A stretch of DNA of 64,000 nucleotides from Massilia sp. PAMC28688 (GTDB taxonomy: Bacteria; Pseudomonadota; Gammaproteobacteria; Burkholderiales; Burkholderiaceae_D). A program made the translations under genes and the position numbers. This document shows, one piece after another, positions 49,932 through 55,379 of this stretch (positions within the stretch are counted from its first letter, which is position 1; the number at the start of each line of letters is the position of its first letter). The stretch is from assembly GCF_019443445.1 (NCBI RefSeq), contig NZ_CP080378.1:3906001-3970000 (forward strand), read 5' to 3'. The notes under the pieces were generated by a model, which was given only the letters and a program-made list of their open reading frames with translations, was not told the DNA's origin and did not search any database.

Positions 49932-50117
49932 AACTTCCCTTCAGGTTTAAAATGACAACTGTGATAGCTTACCACTGGTCCCCCCGCAGAGCGAGCATCC
50001 TGGTTTTTTTGGCGCCATAGGGGGATTGGCGTCCCCGGGCGCCGCCGCGCCGGCGGGCGGCAATGGCGCGGATGGTTTTCCTTGGACAGCCGGCCTGGAC
50101 TTCGGTACCCTGCCTGC

Positions 50118-52190
50118 ATGAGAACCGTCAATTCCTTCGTTTCAAAATTTGCAATCCTGGCCGGCTTGCTGGCCGGTGTGGCGCCCCCGTCGCTGGCGCA
50201 GGACAGGCCGGCCACCGCCGCCGCCATCAGGGCGCACATTGACAAGGATCGTACCCAGGTCATCCCGGTCTTGAGGGCGGCGCTGGCCAACAAGGACATG
50301 GACGTGCCGGACCGGCTGTGGGCCATTGCGCAGCTGGCGGCGACGCTGGACAGGTCACTCAAGTACGAGGAAGCGCTGGCAATGATCCGGCAGGGCCAGC
50401 AGGAAGCGTCCGCCATGCCGATCGAGCGTGTGGCGTTCACGCGCCAGGCAATGCAGATTTACAGCAATACTGACAAGCACCAGCTGGCCCTGGCGGAATA
50501 CATGAAAATTGCCCCATTGCTGCCCACGCTGTCGGGCAAAAGCGGGCAACTGGACGGCCGGGTGGAAGCTGCGCGCGCGTGGATGGCGGGCGGCAAGGTA
50601 ATGTCTGCTCTGGGCCAACTGCCCGAAGCGATGGATCTGCTGGTGCGCGCGCTGAACGTGTTTGACGCGAGCGCGGGAGGTGAAGGGGGGCAGGCAGAAA
50701 GCCTCAATCACATCGCCCACGTCCACTACAAGAGCGGCAACCTGGAGGCAGCGGTACGCGATGCCCAGCGCGCGATCGACATTGCCGAGAAAGCGGGACT
50801 GACCGACCAGCTGGCCGGCCTGTACATGAGCCAGGCACACTTCATGTCCCGGCAGGGCAAGGTGGAGCAGCAGTACCAGGCCCTGATGCGGGCGCGAGAA
50901 CTGGCGCAGCAGGACGATAACGCGTTCAACCTGGCCGTCATCACCACCAACCTGTCGGACGTGGCGCTGCAGCGGGGCGATTACCGCGCCACGCTGCGCT
51001 TCGTGGAAGAAGCCATTCCGCTGGTGGAGCGCTCGGGCGACCGCGAATCGCTGCTGGTGTGCTGGGTCAACAAGGGCATCGCCCTGAACCGGCTGGGCCA
51101 GCGCGAGGGCCTGGACCTGATCCGGAAGGCGATTGCCGAATTTACCACCACGCCGGGCCAGCAGAATGTGGCGGCCGAAGTGCAGGGGGTGCTGGCCGAG
51201 GAACTGGCCCGTAACGGCGACTTTGCCGCTGCCTATGCGGCCGCCATGGACTTCAAGAAGCGCAGCGATGCGGTGCGCAGCGCGAGCGACCAGAAACGCA
51301 TCGCCGATTCGACCGCCCGCTACGAAGCGGACAAGAAGCAGCGCCAGATCGAGGTGCTGGAACAGGAGCAGCGCGGGCAAAAGCGCATCCAGATGCTGTG
51401 GGTGCTGGCCGGCGCCCTCGGCCTGCTGACCACCGTGGTCCTCCTGATCAGCCGAGTCTACCTCAAGCGCGCCTACCGCACCGTGGCCGAGATGTCGCTG
51501 GCCGATCCGCTCACGGGCCTGCGCAACCGGCGCTACCTGGCCAGCCGCATCGAGGGCGACCTGGCACAGGGCCTGCGCCAGCGTGCCACCCAGCGCCTGC
51601 AGGGAAAGGCGGTGGGGCAGAACGCCGACATCGTCTTCATCATGATCGACCTGGACCACTTCAAGGCCGTCAATGACGAGCATGGGCACGCCGCCGGCGA
51701 CGCCGTGCTGCGGCAGTTTTCGGCCATCCTCATGGAGGAGGTGCGCGATTCCGACACCGTGGTGCGCTGGGGCGGCGAGGAATTCCTGATCATGGCCAGG
51801 CAGGCTTCGAGTGCAGACATTCACCTGCTGGCAGAGCGCATCCGTGCCCGCGTGGCGGGACACCGCTTCGATATTGGCCAGGGGACGGTGCTGTCGAAGA
51901 GCTGTTCGATCGGCTTTGCCACCTATCCCTTCCATGCGCCCGAAGCGGCGCAGGCGCGCTGGGAAGATGTGGTGTCGCTGGCCGACCAGTGCCTCTATGC
52001 GGCCAAGGCGAGTGGGCGCGACATGTGGGTGGGCGTGGTCCATCAGGCTCCACTACAGGCCCCACCAGCGGCGCCGCCGCATGCGGCAGATGTGCGCCAG
52101 GGCCTGCAGGATGGCAGCTTGCAGCTGTGGCACAGCGCCGGACGGGAAGTGCGCTGGCCGGGCGAGCATGCCCCACAGCGCGGCGCCTGA
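50118..52190 (+). CDS. Periplasmic TPR sensor with C-terminal GGDEF domain
   Basis: This 690-residue protein has a signal peptide (to about residue 27), a helical TPR domain (about 40-410; AESLNHIAHVHYKSGNLEAAV and similar units), one membrane helix (about 425-450, MLWVLAGALGLLTTVVLLIS) and a cytoplasmic GGDEF domain. The active site is GGEEF at 552-556, with an RDSD inhibitory site upstream. It should make c-di-GMP in response to something bound by the periplasmic TPRs. Start at the ATG at 50118. It is divergent from telA. Confidence 0.9.
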   Translation: MRTVNSFVSKFAILAGLLAGVAPPSLAQDRPATAAAIRAHIDKDRTQVIPVLRAALANKDMDVPDRLWAIAQLAATLDRSLKYEEALAMIRQGQQEASAMPIERVAFTRQAMQIYSNTDKHQLALAEYMKIAPLLPTLSGKSGQLDGRVEAARAWMAGGKVMSALGQLPEAMDLLVRALNVFDASAGGEGGQAESLNHIAHVHYKSGNLEAAVRDAQRAIDIAEKAGLTDQLAGLYMSQAHFMSRQGKVEQQYQALMRARELAQQDDNAFNLAVITTNLSDVALQRGDYRATLRFVEEAIPLVERSGDRESLLVCWVNKGIALNRLGQREGLDLIRKAIAEFTTTPGQQNVAAEVQGVLAEELARNGDFAAAYAAAMDFKKRSDAVRSASDQKRIADSTARYEADKKQRQIEVLEQEQRGQKRIQMLWVLAGALGLLTTVVLLISRVYLKRAYRTVAEMSLADPLTGLRNRRYLASRIEGDLAQGLRQRATQRLQGKAVGQNADIVFIMIDLDHFKAVNDEHGHAAGDAVLRQFSAILMEEVRDSDTVVRWGGEEFLIMARQASSADIHLLAERIRARVAGHRFDIGQGTVLSKSCSIGFATYPFHAPEAAQARWEDVVSLADQCLYAAKASGRDMWVGVVHQAPLQAPPAAPPHAADVRQGLQDGSLQLWHSAGREVRWPGEHAPQRGA

Positions 52191-52362: not shown

Positions 52363-53166
52363 ATGAACATTCTTCAACGCAACAACGTGACCGTATCCGG
52401 CAGCGGACCGGTCACCATGATTTTTGCCCATGGCTTTGGCTGCGACCAGAACATGTGGCGCCTGCTTGCCCCTTGCTTTGCCGAACGTTTCACGACCGTG
52501 ACCTTTGACCTGACCGGCAGTGGCCGCTCGGATCTGTCGGCCTACGACCGCGCGCGCTACGACAGGCTGGAAGGGCATGCCAGCGATGTCCTCGCCATCC
52601 TGGACGCCATTGATGCCGGGCCCGCGGTGATCGTGGGCCATTCGGTCAGCGCCATGGTTGGCCTGCTGGCGGCGATCGAGCAGCCCCGGCGGTTCCTGGC
52701 GCAGGTCATGGTGGGGCCGTCGGCCTGTTACCTCAACGATGGTGAATACCTGGGCGGCTTCAGCAAGGCCGATATCGATGAGCTGCTCGACACCATGGAC
52801 ATGAATTACCTGGGCTGGTCGAGCGCCATGGCGCCCACCATCATGGGCGCGCCTGACAGGCCGGCGCTGGCCGAGGAACTGACCAACAGTTTTTGCCGGA
52901 CCGACCCGGAAATCGCCAAGCATTTCGCGCGCGTGACCTTTACTTCCGATTACCGCTCCGTGCTGCCCAGGTCGCAGGTGCCGGCCCTGATTTTGCAGTG
53001 CAGCGACGACATCATCGCGCCCCTGACGGTGGGGCAGTACATGCATCGCACCATGCCCATGAGCGAGCTGAAGATCATCGACAATGTCGGCCATTGCCCG
53101 CACCTGAGCGCGCCATCGGCCAGCTTTGACGCCATCGATTCCTTCCTCAAGCGGCTGGGCGTGTAA
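52363..53166 (+). CDS. RsbQ/KAI2-like alpha/beta hydrolase
   Basis: This 267-residue hydrolase has oxyanion-hole region FAHGFGCDQNMWR, Ser94 in GHSVSA, Asp216 in CSDDIIAP and His244 in NVGHCPHLSAP, the exact pattern of RsbQ of Bacillus and the plant receptors KAI2/D14. RsbQ hydrolyses or binds a small hydrophobic molecule and relays energy stress to the PAS domain of RsbP. Here the next gene, beginning directly at its stop codon (TAAATG), is a PAS histidine kinase, so an analogous two-protein sensor is proposed. Confidence 0.88.
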   Translation: MNILQRNNVTVSGSGPVTMIFAHGFGCDQNMWRLLAPCFAERFTTVTFDLTGSGRSDLSAYDRARYDRLEGHASDVLAILDAIDAGPAVIVGHSVSAMVGLLAAIEQPRRFLAQVMVGPSACYLNDGEYLGGFSKADIDELLDTMDMNYLGWSSAMAPTIMGAPDRPALAEELTNSFCRTDPEIAKHFARVTFTSDYRSVLPRSQVPALILQCSDDIIAPLTVGQYMHRTMPMSELKIIDNVGHCPHLSAPSASFDAIDSFLKRLGV

Positions 53167-54396
53167 ATGGCCATGGGCCCGCCAGCCGATCAATCGTGGC
53201 AGTGGGAAGCCCCATGCGGCATGCTGATCACGGATGCCCGCGGCAAGGTCCTGCGCGCCAACGCCACGCTGAGCCGCTGGCTCGGCTATGCCGAGTCCGA
53301 GATGGCGCAGTTCCAGCTGGCGCAGCTGCTGACCGTTGGCGGGCGGCTGTTTCACCAGACGCACCTGGCGCCGCTGCTGCAAATGCAGGGTTCCGTGGCA
53401 GAAGTGCAGCTGCAGCTGCGCCACCGCGACGGCCAGGCGCTGCCGGTGCTGGCGGCCATCGAGCGCGGCGCCGACGCCGAGGGCAATCGCGTTGATCACC
53501 ATGCCTTCATGGTGGCGGCGGACCGCCGCAAGTATGAACAGGAGCTGCTCGGTGCGCGCCAGCGCGCGGAGGCGGCACTCGAGGAACGCCGCGCGGCCCT
53601 GGAATCGCTGCGCCAGAAGGAGCTGGAACTGCGCAAGGCGAACGAGCAGCTCAAGCTGATCGACCTGCGCAAGGACGAGTTCCTGGCCGTGCTGGCGCAC
53701 GAGTTGCGCAACCCCCTCACGCCCATGCGCAGTGGCCTGGACCTGCTGGCCATGCGCAACAACCAGGATCCGGTGGTGCAGCGCGTGCTGGGCGTGTTCG
53801 ACCGCCAGGTCGCGCTCATGTCGCGCCTGGTGGAAGACCTGATGGATGTCTCGCGCATCGGCAAGGGCAAACTACAGCTCAAGCGCGAGCCGGTGCTGGT
53901 GAGCATGCTGGTGCGCCATGCGGTGGAACTGGCCACGCCGCTGTTCAGCAAGGCTTCGCAGACGCTGCACGTGGCGGCAGGTGCCGACTGCACGCTCGAT
54001 GGCGACCCGGTGCGCCTGACCCAGATGCTGGTCAACCTGCTCAACAATGCTTCCAAGTACACCCATGCGGGCGGCTCGGCCTGGATCAGGTTCGAGCGCC
54101 AGGAGAACGAGGCCGTGATCACGATTCGCGACACCGGCATTGGCCTGGAACCGGAGCGGCTGTCGGAAGTATTCACGCTGTTTTCGCAAGTGGACAGCGC
54201 CACCGAGCGGGCCCAGGGCGGCATCGGCATCGGCCTCGGGCTGGTGAAGGGCATCGTCGAACTGCACGGCGGCGCGGTGAGCGCCCACAGTGCCGGCCTG
54301 GGTCACGGCAGCGAGTTCGTGGTGCGGCTGCCGGTGGCGGCGACGCCCCCCGGCGCCTTGACGCCGGCCGAACGTTCCACTCAGTCGGCCGGATAG
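53167..54396 (+). CDS. PAS-domain soluble histidine kinase paired with RsbQ-like hydrolase
   Basis: This 409-residue protein has no membrane segment: PAS (about 10-120; GMLITDARGKVLRANATLSRWLG), a coiled-coil linker (about 120-165), HisKA with His178 in LAHELRNPL, and an HATPase domain with N box VNLLNNASKYTH, DTGIGL and GGIGIGLGLVK. It autophosphorylates from ATP, but no response regulator is adjacent. The PAS replaces the RsbP PAS-phosphatase of Bacillus as likely partner of the hydrolase. Its 3' end overlaps the convergent oxidoreductase gene by 16 bases. Confidence 0.92.
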   Translation: MAMGPPADQSWQWEAPCGMLITDARGKVLRANATLSRWLGYAESEMAQFQLAQLLTVGGRLFHQTHLAPLLQMQGSVAEVQLQLRHRDGQALPVLAAIERGADAEGNRVDHHAFMVAADRRKYEQELLGARQRAEAALEERRAALESLRQKELELRKANEQLKLIDLRKDEFLAVLAHELRNPLTPMRSGLDLLAMRNNQDPVVQRVLGVFDRQVALMSRLVEDLMDVSRIGKGKLQLKREPVLVSMLVRHAVELATPLFSKASQTLHVAAGADCTLDGDPVRLTQMLVNLLNNASKYTHAGGSAWIRFERQENEAVITIRDTGIGLEPERLSEVFTLFSQVDSATERAQGGIGIGLGLVKGIVELHGGAVSAHSAGLGHGSEFVVRLPVAATPPGALTPAERSTQSAG

Positions 54397-55379
54397 TACA
54401 AGCCAATCTGCGCGCGGATGGTGTCGAGCAGGCCCATGATCGCAAGCGTGTCATCGTGGCGCATGTGCGGGCTTTCAATCAAGCCTTCGCGCAGGCAGCG
54501 GCCAGCTTCAAGCGCCTCATGCACGTAACCGTTGCCCAGAAATGGCGTGGCGATCGTGCGCACGGTGCCGTCGGCCGTTTTGACCGTGAGCGACTCGGTC
54601 AGGTGGAACATGGCATTCATGCGCACGTTGCCAAGCGTTCCGGAGACCGTCAGTTCGCACGGCGTGCGGGCCCGCAGCGAGCAGCTGCATACCGACATGG
54701 CGCCGCTTGCGTGCTTGAGCGAAAAGCCGGTGGTGTGGTCGATGCCGCCATCGGTCAGGAAGGCCTGCGCCCGCACCGATTCCACAGGCCCCAGCAAGGC
54801 GCAGGCAATCGACAGCGGGTAGATGCCCAAATCGAGCAAGGCGCCGCCGCCCAGTTCGCGCTTGTTGACCCGGTGCTCCGGGTCGAGCGTGGCGGCAAAG
54901 CCGAAATCGGCGTGGACCTGGCGCACCGTCCCGATCTCGCCGCTGGCGATGATGCGGCGCACCTCTTCGAGGGCGGGCATGAAGCGGGTCCACATCGCTT
55001 CCATCAAAAACAGCCTGTTCGCACGCGCCAGCGCCACCACTTCCCGCGCCTGGCGCAGGTTCATGGTGAAAGGCTTCTCGCACAGGACCGCCTTGCCGGC
55101 CCGCAGTACCATCAGCGCGTTGTCTGCATGCATGGGGTGGGGCGTGGCGATGTAAATGATGTCCACGCCGCTCGCATCGGCCAGCGCCTCGTAGCTGCCG
55201 TAGCTGGCAGGATTGCCGAATTCTGCGCCAAAGGCGCGCGCACTGTCTGCGCTGCGCGAGCCGACAGCGGCCAGGACGGCGCCCGGCGTTGCCATCAAGG
55301 CGGTGGCAAAGGCGCGCGCAATGCCGCCGGTTCCCAGGATGCCCCAGCGAATGGGATTGTTCGTGGCCTGCATGTTCAT
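54381..55379 (-). CDS. Gfo/Idh/MocA family oxidoreductase
   Basis: This 332-residue NAD(P)-dependent enzyme has the Rossmann motif GILGTGGIARAF near residue 14 and the catalytic lysine in the family EKP motif (VLCEKPFTMN), followed by FLMEAMWTRFMP. Members oxidise or reduce sugars and cyclic polyols. It is the last gene of the beta-glucan operon and overlaps the glucanase gene by four bases, so its substrate is probably a sugar released in that pathway. The identity of that sugar is not evident. Confidence 0.88.
   Translation of the reverse strand: MNMQATNNPIRWGILGTGGIARAFATALMATPGAVLAAVGSRSADSARAFGAEFGNPASYGSYEALADASGVDIIYIATPHPMHADNALMVLRAGKAVLCEKPFTMNLRQAREVVALARANRLFLMEAMWTRFMPALEEVRRIIASGEIGTVRQVHADFGFAATLDPEHRVNKRELGGGALLDLGIYPLSIACALLGPVESVRAQAFLTDGGIDHTTGFSLKHASGAMSVCSCSLRARTPCELTVSGTLGNVRMNAMFHLTESLTVKTADGTVRTIATPFLGNGYVHEALEAGRCLREGLIESPHMRHDDTLAIMGLLDTIRAQIGLYYPAD

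What the first reader, a model, noticed from the sequence alone, without database searches (positions are those of the whole stretch)
52363..54396. RsbQ/KAI2-like hydrolase abutting a soluble PAS histidine kinase
The two genes touch (TAAATG). The hydrolase keeps the full Ser94-Asp216-His244 triad with the RsbQ/KAI2 sequence context, and the kinase begins with a PAS domain. In Bacillus RsbQ activates RsbP (PAS plus phosphatase); here the output is a histidine kinase instead. This suggests a bacterial butenolide/karrikin-like or energy-stress receptor wired to two-component signalling, with an unknown ligand and an orphan response regulator elsewhere.
Basis: partly seen in the sequence, partly recalled or inferred. 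Interest (0 to 1): 0.7.

Follow-up and report, generated by a model that had tools for sequence, protein, structure and literature searches.

The report
RsbQ hydrolase–PAS histidine kinase pair
Two neighbouring genes encode a hydrolase-like sensor protein and the kinase it most likely switches on, a pairing described in other bacteria in 2011, so this is a good but ordinary new example whose signal molecule is still unknown.

Summary
52363-53166 encodes a 267-aa alpha/beta hydrolase with intact Ser94-Asp216-His244, 51% identical to Bacillus RsbQ. TAAATG joins it, in frame, to a 409-aa soluble PAS-HisKA-HATPase kinase. The architecture is not new. Nadezhdin, Brody and Price (2011, PMC3183031) found 45 adjacent RsbQ/RsbP-PAS pairs with phosphatase, histidine kinase or diguanylate cyclase outputs. 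By the paper's residue numbers the window PAS fits all nine RsbP-PAS positions they tested (six identical, three of similar class) and lacks the DIT motif. It is a new member of that class.

What I add: the PAS lies directly downstream of 105 of 151 RsbQ rows in the family. Of 29 partnered loci, 26 continue past the kinase as hybrids do; the window kinase belongs to a receiver-less clade nested among hybrids, and the nearest receiver domain in its genome is 79 kb away. Natural single-chain RsbQ-PAS-kinase proteins exist (45 of 120 listed), and RsbQ-PAS-phosphatase and receiver-RsbQ chains too. A karrikin- or butenolide-type ligand has no support here.

The parts
52363..53166 (+). RsbQ-family alpha/beta hydrolase, 267 aa
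   Evidence: Abhydrolase_6; RsbQ 1wom E 2.7e-89 by sequence; 51% identity, rmsd 1.1 by fold
52642..52644 (+). nucleophile Ser94 (GHSVSAM)
   Evidence: Ser in 55 of 56 aligned rows
53008..53010 (+). acid Asp216 (choice between Asp215 and Asp216 rests on recalled motif spacing)
   Evidence: Asp in 55 of 56 aligned rows
53092..53094 (+). base His244
   Evidence: His in 51 of 56 aligned rows
53167..54396 (+). soluble PAS-HisKA-HATPase histidine kinase, 409 aa, without a receiver domain
53203..53520 (+). N-terminal RsbP-type PAS domain (about residues 13-118)
53344..53373 (+). F-alpha signature R60-L-F62-H63-Q-T-H66-L-A-P69, at the numbers of RsbP Q53, F55, C56, Y59, P62 plus 7
   Evidence: F62, H66 and P69 identical in 37 of 37 kinases
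53521..53670 (+). helical linker between PAS and HisKA
   Evidence: helix over model residues 386-422, i.e. kinase residues 118-154 (the model ends at 155); coiled coil not scored
53671..53865 (+). HisKA domain with phospho-acceptor His178 (codon 53698-53700)
54001..54339 (+). HATPase_c catalytic domain

Best explanation
The pair is an RsbQ-PAS sensing module with a histidine-kinase output. The hydrolase binds, and probably turns over, an unknown small intracellular molecule in its Ser-Asp-His pocket. It docks on the F-alpha face of the PAS domains of the kinase dimer, and the PAS-to-linker helix changes the kinase activity of His178. The phosphoryl group then goes to a response regulator encoded elsewhere, because the receiver that most relatives examined carry in cis is missing. 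Shown here: the genes, the triad, the PAS signature, the conserved adjacency, the absence of a receiver nearby, and the existence of single-chain versions in other bacteria. Inferred from B. subtilis RsbQ/RsbP (PMC3183031): contact through F-alpha and activation. Unknown: the ligand, the sign of the output, and the regulator.
For: RsbQ identity of the hydrolase. All nine RsbP-PAS positions fit at a constant offset of +7 by the paper's residue numbers; F62, H66, P69 and E79 are identical in 37 of 37 kinases and a simple pattern finds no DIT-like motif in the 37. Adjacency in 105 of 151 rows, and also in two genomes of other families of the order (L057, L058). Natural fusion of RsbQ to PAS and kinase in 45 of 120 listed long proteins, with at least 5 label changes forced by supported branches; the triad is kept in most of an alignment of the window with 55 of the 70 fused proteins (Ser 55, Asp 55, His 51 of 56 rows). 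Of the 29 partnered loci examined, the only three without a receiver (window, G094, G113) form a 99-supported clade in the hydrolase tree, and their kinases lie in one 99-supported receiver-less clade, which suggests inheritance as a unit. Complete kinase motifs. B. subtilis genetics of the module as read.
Against: 46 of the 151 RsbQ rows have no PAS match next to them (2 of these are the first of tandem RsbQ genes before a PAS kinase), and this genome carries such a partnerless paralogue, so RsbQ proteins can act apart from this module. 37 of 142 PAS rows have no listed hydrolase beside them; the hydrolase list was cut, so some of these are only unlisted. In one relative (G382) the PAS and the kinase part lie in different frames. 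No contact, ligand or phosphotransfer was measured, and the hydrolase-PAS model gave no confident relative placement.
Confidence: 0.85

Rival explanations
1. Product delivery (Model 1 of PMC3183031): the hydrolase makes a small molecule and hands it to the pocket of the PAS domain, which is the true sensor.
For: The triad is conserved in most rows even where hydrolase and kinase are one chain. In B. subtilis the triad is required.
Against: No ligand or cofactor of the PAS is known. A receptor role of the hydrolase (Model 2) needs the same pocket residues, so conservation does not separate the two.
Confidence: 0.4
2. Receptor subunit (Model 2 of PMC3183031): the hydrolase is the ligand-binding subunit and signals by shape; hydrolysis, if any, only resets it, as debated for plant D14/KAI2 (recalled).
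For: Single-chain versions with kinase or phosphatase outputs suggest fixed stoichiometry and local action. Fold match to D14/KAI2 receptors.
Against: A fused enzyme could equally deliver a product locally.
Confidence: 0.45
3. The PAS binds heme: His63 sits where the 2011 paper places the heme-coordinating His of EcDos and FixL, so the kinase is a gas or redox sensor assisted by the hydrolase.
For: His at this position in 31 of 37 separate kinases and 35 of 56 rows of the fused set; position equivalence as stated in PMC3183031.
Against: Tyr, Phe, Val, Cys, Arg or Leu in the other rows. In B. subtilis C56A had only a modest effect. F-alpha conservation is equally explained by RsbQ binding.
Confidence: 0.08
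4. The two genes are neighbours by chance or share only an operon, with a metabolic esterase beside an unrelated kinase.
For: Partnerless RsbQ paralogues exist.
Against: Adjacency in 24 of the 25 best rows and 105 of 151 overall, gene fusions and the PAS signature.
Confidence: 0.03

Closest known systems
RsbQ-PAS module with histidine kinase output (Nadezhdin, Brody and Price 2011, PMC3183031; 45 pairs over all outputs)
   Same: Hydrolase gene immediately upstream; RsbP-type PAS most N-terminal in the kinase; nine signature positions; no DIT motif; helical linker; histidine kinase output in a Gram-negative
   Different: Nothing essential. This kinase belongs to a receiver-less clade nested among hybrid kinases
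B. subtilis RsbQ-RsbP (sigma-B energy-stress branch)
   Same: RsbQ 51% identical; at the published numbers of C10, L13, L48, F55, E72 and P86 the window has the same residue, at Q53, C56 and Y59 it has Arg, His and His (RsbP sequence itself not fetched)
   Different: The output is a histidine kinase, not a PPM phosphatase; no sigma-B pathway is implied
Plant KAI2 / D14 karrikin and strigolactone receptors
   Same: Same fold and triad; target-normalised TM 0.88-0.96 in the listed matches
   Different: 30-39% identity in the listed plant-type matches; partners in plants are F-box proteins (recalled), not PAS kinases; no shared ligand shown
RsbU/RsbT (eLife 2025, PMC12143880, passages only)
   Same: Partner-protein control of an output domain through a helical linker; the paper also models two RsbQ on an RsbP dimer
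   Different: Different sensor domain and partner protein

Membership tests
RsbQ family | closest solved relative is RsbQ, over full length | tested here: met
   1wom E 2.7e-89, residues 2-263, 51% identity, TM 0.94 by target
RsbQ family | Ser-Asp-His triad | tested here: met
   S94, D216, H244
RsbQ family | activates a partner PAS protein; triad needed | not testable with these tools
   needs bench work
RsbP-PAS (Q-PAS module) | RsbQ homologue encoded immediately upstream of the PAS protein | tested here: met
   TAAATG; conserved in 105 of 151 rows
[quoted passage not shown]
   PAS at residues 16-104
RsbP-PAS (Q-PAS module) | nine distinctive residues, with F-alpha conserved | tested here: met
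   By the paper's residue numbers, without the RsbP sequence: C17, L20, L55, F62, E79, P93 identical; R60 for Q53, H63 for C56, H66 for Y59. That basic belongs to Q53 and His/Tyr to Y59 is my reading of the legend's classes, the figure not being held; for C56 the text says most are hydrophobic or neutral aromatic and two are His. Columns counted
RsbP-PAS (Q-PAS module) | no DIT motif after the PAS | tested here: met
   pattern D[IVL][TS] absent after the PAS in 37 of 37 kinases
RsbP-PAS (Q-PAS module) | potential coiled coil of at least 21 residues to the output domain | tested here: inconclusive
   helix of 37 residues up to the end of the model; coiled coil itself not scored
RsbP-PAS (Q-PAS module) | binds RsbQ through F-alpha | not testable with these tools
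   model confident per domain only; no coordinates supplied
Plant KAI2/D14 receptor family | nearer to KAI2/D14 than to RsbQ | tested here: not met
   RsbQ 302 bits, Arabidopsis KAI2 184, best plant-type chain 200; one search agrees
Plant KAI2/D14 receptor family | perceives karrikin, strigolactone or a butenolide | not testable with these tools
   no ligand evidence
HisKA histidine kinase | HisKA His and complete N, G1 and G2 boxes | tested here: met
   H178, N box at 290, DTGIGL at 322, GIGIGLGL at 352

The most novel reading that the evidence does not exclude
RsbQ is a stoichiometric ligand-binding receptor subunit rather than a free enzyme, and evolution has welded it repeatedly to its PAS and to kinase, phosphatase or even response-regulator parts. 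The natural single chains (for example the 649-aa Polaromonas-type proteins) would let the long-open question of what RsbQ senses be answered with one purified protein. The window pair is the unfused form of such a receptor, whose lineage has lost its in-cis receiver and now talks to a separate regulator.
Probability: 0.35. Interest if true: 0.55.

Novelty: new member of a known kind. Interest (0 to 1): 0.27.

Why it matters
The signal sensed by RsbQ-type hydrolases was unknown in the paper read here (PMC3183031), and the natural KAI2 ligand of plants is likewise undiscovered (abstract of PMC10504578, seen in a search listing). Members with a kinase output give a direct biochemical read-out (autophosphorylation), and the natural single-chain relatives found here would remove the problem that purified RsbQ and RsbP did not form detectable complexes without cell extract (PMC3183031). 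This locus alone adds one clean example from Oxalobacteraceae.

Tried and rejected
Conserved neighbours as pointers to the output: rejected. Upstream of the pair lies a TPR-GGDEF gene in the window but a 735-aa hybrid-kinase gene in the nearest relative G094 (its kinase part also scores, its receiver and membrane parts read by eye).

Finding the cognate regulator by similarity to one relative's receiver (G011): no clear candidate. The 18 best matches in this genome are 42-52% identical and 17 lie in open frames of 444-1179 codons; one, at G000:C1:330315-330659 (45%), lies in a 265-codon frame and was not followed up.

Same-frame TAAATG as a sign of read-through or coupling: 13 of 29, not clearly above chance.

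Structure of the hydrolase-PAS unit: both domains confident (pLDDT 91.3) but pTM 0.65, and no coordinates were placed in the box, so no interface was read.

Genome-contig scan: its patterns turned out generic for kinases, and 6 of the 80 loci kept carried both parts. Promoter scan: 0 found, 0.4 expected.

Long RsbQ proteins whose extra length is N-terminal (41 of 120) were not counted as RsbQ-PAS-kinase fusions. Three checked carry a real extra domain (P0171 receiver, P0126 OmpR-type regulator, P0167 HATPase_c_2); the rest were judged only from the listed domains, and those with none may be wrong starts.

Full report
What is there. The stop TAA is followed at once by ATG, in the same frame. 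Pfam gives Abhydrolase_6 for the first, and PAS_9, HisKA and HATPase_c for the second. The hydrolase has Ser94, Asp216 and His244 (which Asp of 'DD' is catalytic rests on recalled motif spacing). The kinase has His178 and complete N, G1 and G2 motifs and no likely membrane segment.

What family. By sequence the best solved relative of the hydrolase is B. subtilis RsbQ (1wom, E 2.7e-89, 302 bits; best plant-type chain 200 bits, Arabidopsis KAI2 184). By fold it is again RsbQ (51% identity, rmsd 1.1, against 30-39% for plant-type chains in the listed matches). The kinase's PAS was tested against the published signature. I read the abstract and parts 1-4 of 7 of the text of PMC3183031 and searched its main text for fusion terms. 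Its nine tested RsbP positions C10, L13, L48, Q53, F55, C56, Y59, E72, P86 (and P62) fall, by number plus 7, on C17, L20, L55, R60, F62, H63, H66, E79, P93 (and P69); the RsbP sequence itself was not fetched. In 37 kinases (the window plus 36 of the 120 listed, of 255 found, chosen by hand), F62, H66, P69 and E79 are identical in 37, R60 is Arg or Lys in 37, C17 is Cys in 34, P93 is Pro in 35, and a simple pattern finds no DIT-like motif. That paper reports 45 adjacent RsbQ/RsbP-PAS pairs with phosphatase, histidine kinase or cyclase outputs, so the architecture is known; the eLife 2025 paper (PMC12143880, passages only) repeats this and models two RsbQ on an RsbP dimer.

Conservation. In 392 genomes of the family, 152 have an RsbQ match at E 1e-40 and 128 a PAS match at E 1e-10; only a few candidates per genome were scored. 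Comparing positions, 105 of 151 hydrolase rows (150 listed, the list being cut, plus the genome's own second copy) have the PAS 3-109 bases downstream; for the 150 listed rows, by rank in steps of 25, the counts are 24, 21, 17, 14, 15 and 14. 46 rows have no such neighbour; two of them (G325, G372) are the first of two tandem RsbQ genes before a PAS kinase. Of the 46 I read 12 loci (L035, L047, L052, L053, L065-L072) and the main PAS profile found no partner there; a second profile gave 17 bits to a PAS-rich GGDEF gene that converges on the own-genome paralogue. 37 of 142 PAS rows have no listed hydrolase beside them, partly because the hydrolase list was cut. Within the genus as held, 12 of 17 genomes have a match to the whole kinase at E 1e-90. 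Two genomes from other families of the order also carry the pair (L057, L058).

The receiver. Of the 30 loci L001 and L006-L034, one (L019) has no PAS partner. In the other 29 the kinase frame continues at least 105 aa past the HATPase domain in 26, and stops in 3 (window, G094, G113); the 26 include G382, where PAS and kinase part lie in different frames. Of ten kinases scanned, 9 have a Response_reg domain and one (G094) does not. In a tree of 126 kinases (quick method, midpoint drawn; 24 of 119 searched proteins left out, 21 for a linker over 90 aa) the window kinase lies in a clade of 20 receiver-less kinases, support 99, inside a group of 83 that is mostly hybrid (60); 43 other receiver-less kinases carry this PAS on a distant kinase type. 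A single loss of the receiver in this lineage is the simplest reading, but the root is not fixed and supported branches force only 2 changes of the label. In the window's genome 133 receiver-domain matches were found and none lies nearer than 79 kb to the pair. So 'orphan regulator elsewhere' holds; which one is not known.

Natural fusions. Searching for long proteins with the hydrolase part of an in-silico read-through of the pair gave 167 proteins, 120 listed. By profiles built here, 45 of the 120 are hydrolase-PAS-kinase in that order, 25 hydrolase-PAS without this kinase profile, 41 have the extra part in front, and 9 something else behind. Pfam on ten of them showed hydrolase-PAS-HisKA-HATPase (P0122, P0148, P0193), hydrolase with SpoIIE-type phosphatase (P0175, P0196; their PAS clear by my profile, weak in Pfam), hydrolase-PAS without an output (P0204, P0215), receiver-hydrolase (P0171), OmpR-type regulator-hydrolase (P0126) and HATPase_c_2-hydrolase (P0167). 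In the hydrolase tree the 45 need at least 5 changes on supported branches; because only long proteins were searched for, this says that fusion arose or was lost several times, not how often. [quoted passage not shown] Five literature searches answered and I saw no report of them in the listings, which are open-licence papers only.

Mechanism. In B. subtilis (as read) RsbQ contacts RsbP through the PAS, and F55A in F-alpha abolishes binding and signalling. F55 corresponds to F62 here, identical in 37 of 37. I therefore infer docking of the hydrolase on the PAS dimer and control of His178 through the helical linker, whose first 37 residues the model shows as one helix. The fusions, with outputs of different kinds and the triad mostly retained (Ser 55, Asp 55, His 51 of 56 rows: the window and 55 of the 70 fused proteins), argue for local, fixed-stoichiometry action. 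They do not decide between product delivery and receptor models. The model's pTM (0.65) is, as I judge it, near what the hydrolase alone would give, and no coordinates were available, so contact was not tested.

Verdict.

Noticed in passing
own genome G000:C1:4242324-4243118 (L002, L035): A second RsbQ paralogue (51% to the window's, GHSVG serine at 94) has no PAS kinase beside it; a PAS-GGDEF gene (with an EAL-like end, read by eye) converges on it. It clusters with a partnerless copy in G094 (support 99).
   Followed up: partly
L048 3601-5297 (G325) and L049 8211-9952 (G372): Two RsbQ genes in tandem stand before one PAS kinase.
   Followed up: no
L073 6486-8855 (G203, same genus): The kinase frame is present but the hydrolase beside it shows only as a 118-codon frame with a partial match; decay or assembly error not told apart.
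   Followed up: no
L046 6808-9106 (G382): The PAS and the kinase part of the partner lie in different reading frames; decay or assembly error not told apart.
   Followed up: no
P0126, P0130, P0132, P0171: Response-regulator parts (OmpR type or receiver alone) in front of RsbQ in one chain (listed domains; P0126 and P0171 scanned), which may point to the regulators of such modules.
   Followed up: partly
P0202, P0210, P0215 (Halomonas-type): RsbQ-PAS single chains of about 390 aa with no output domain seen (P0215).
   Followed up: no
P0161, P0164, P0165, P0167-P0169: A HATPase_c_2 domain (RsbW-like by recall) sits in front of RsbQ in 411-440 aa proteins (listed domains; P0167 scanned).
   Followed up: partly
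50082-52190 +: TPR-GGDEF gene upstream of the pair, about 170 bases away and on the same strand; not upstream of the pair in the nearest relative G094.
   Followed up: partly
54381-55379 -: A Gfo/Idh/MocA oxidoreductase gene converges on the kinase and overlaps its last 16 bases.
   Followed up: no
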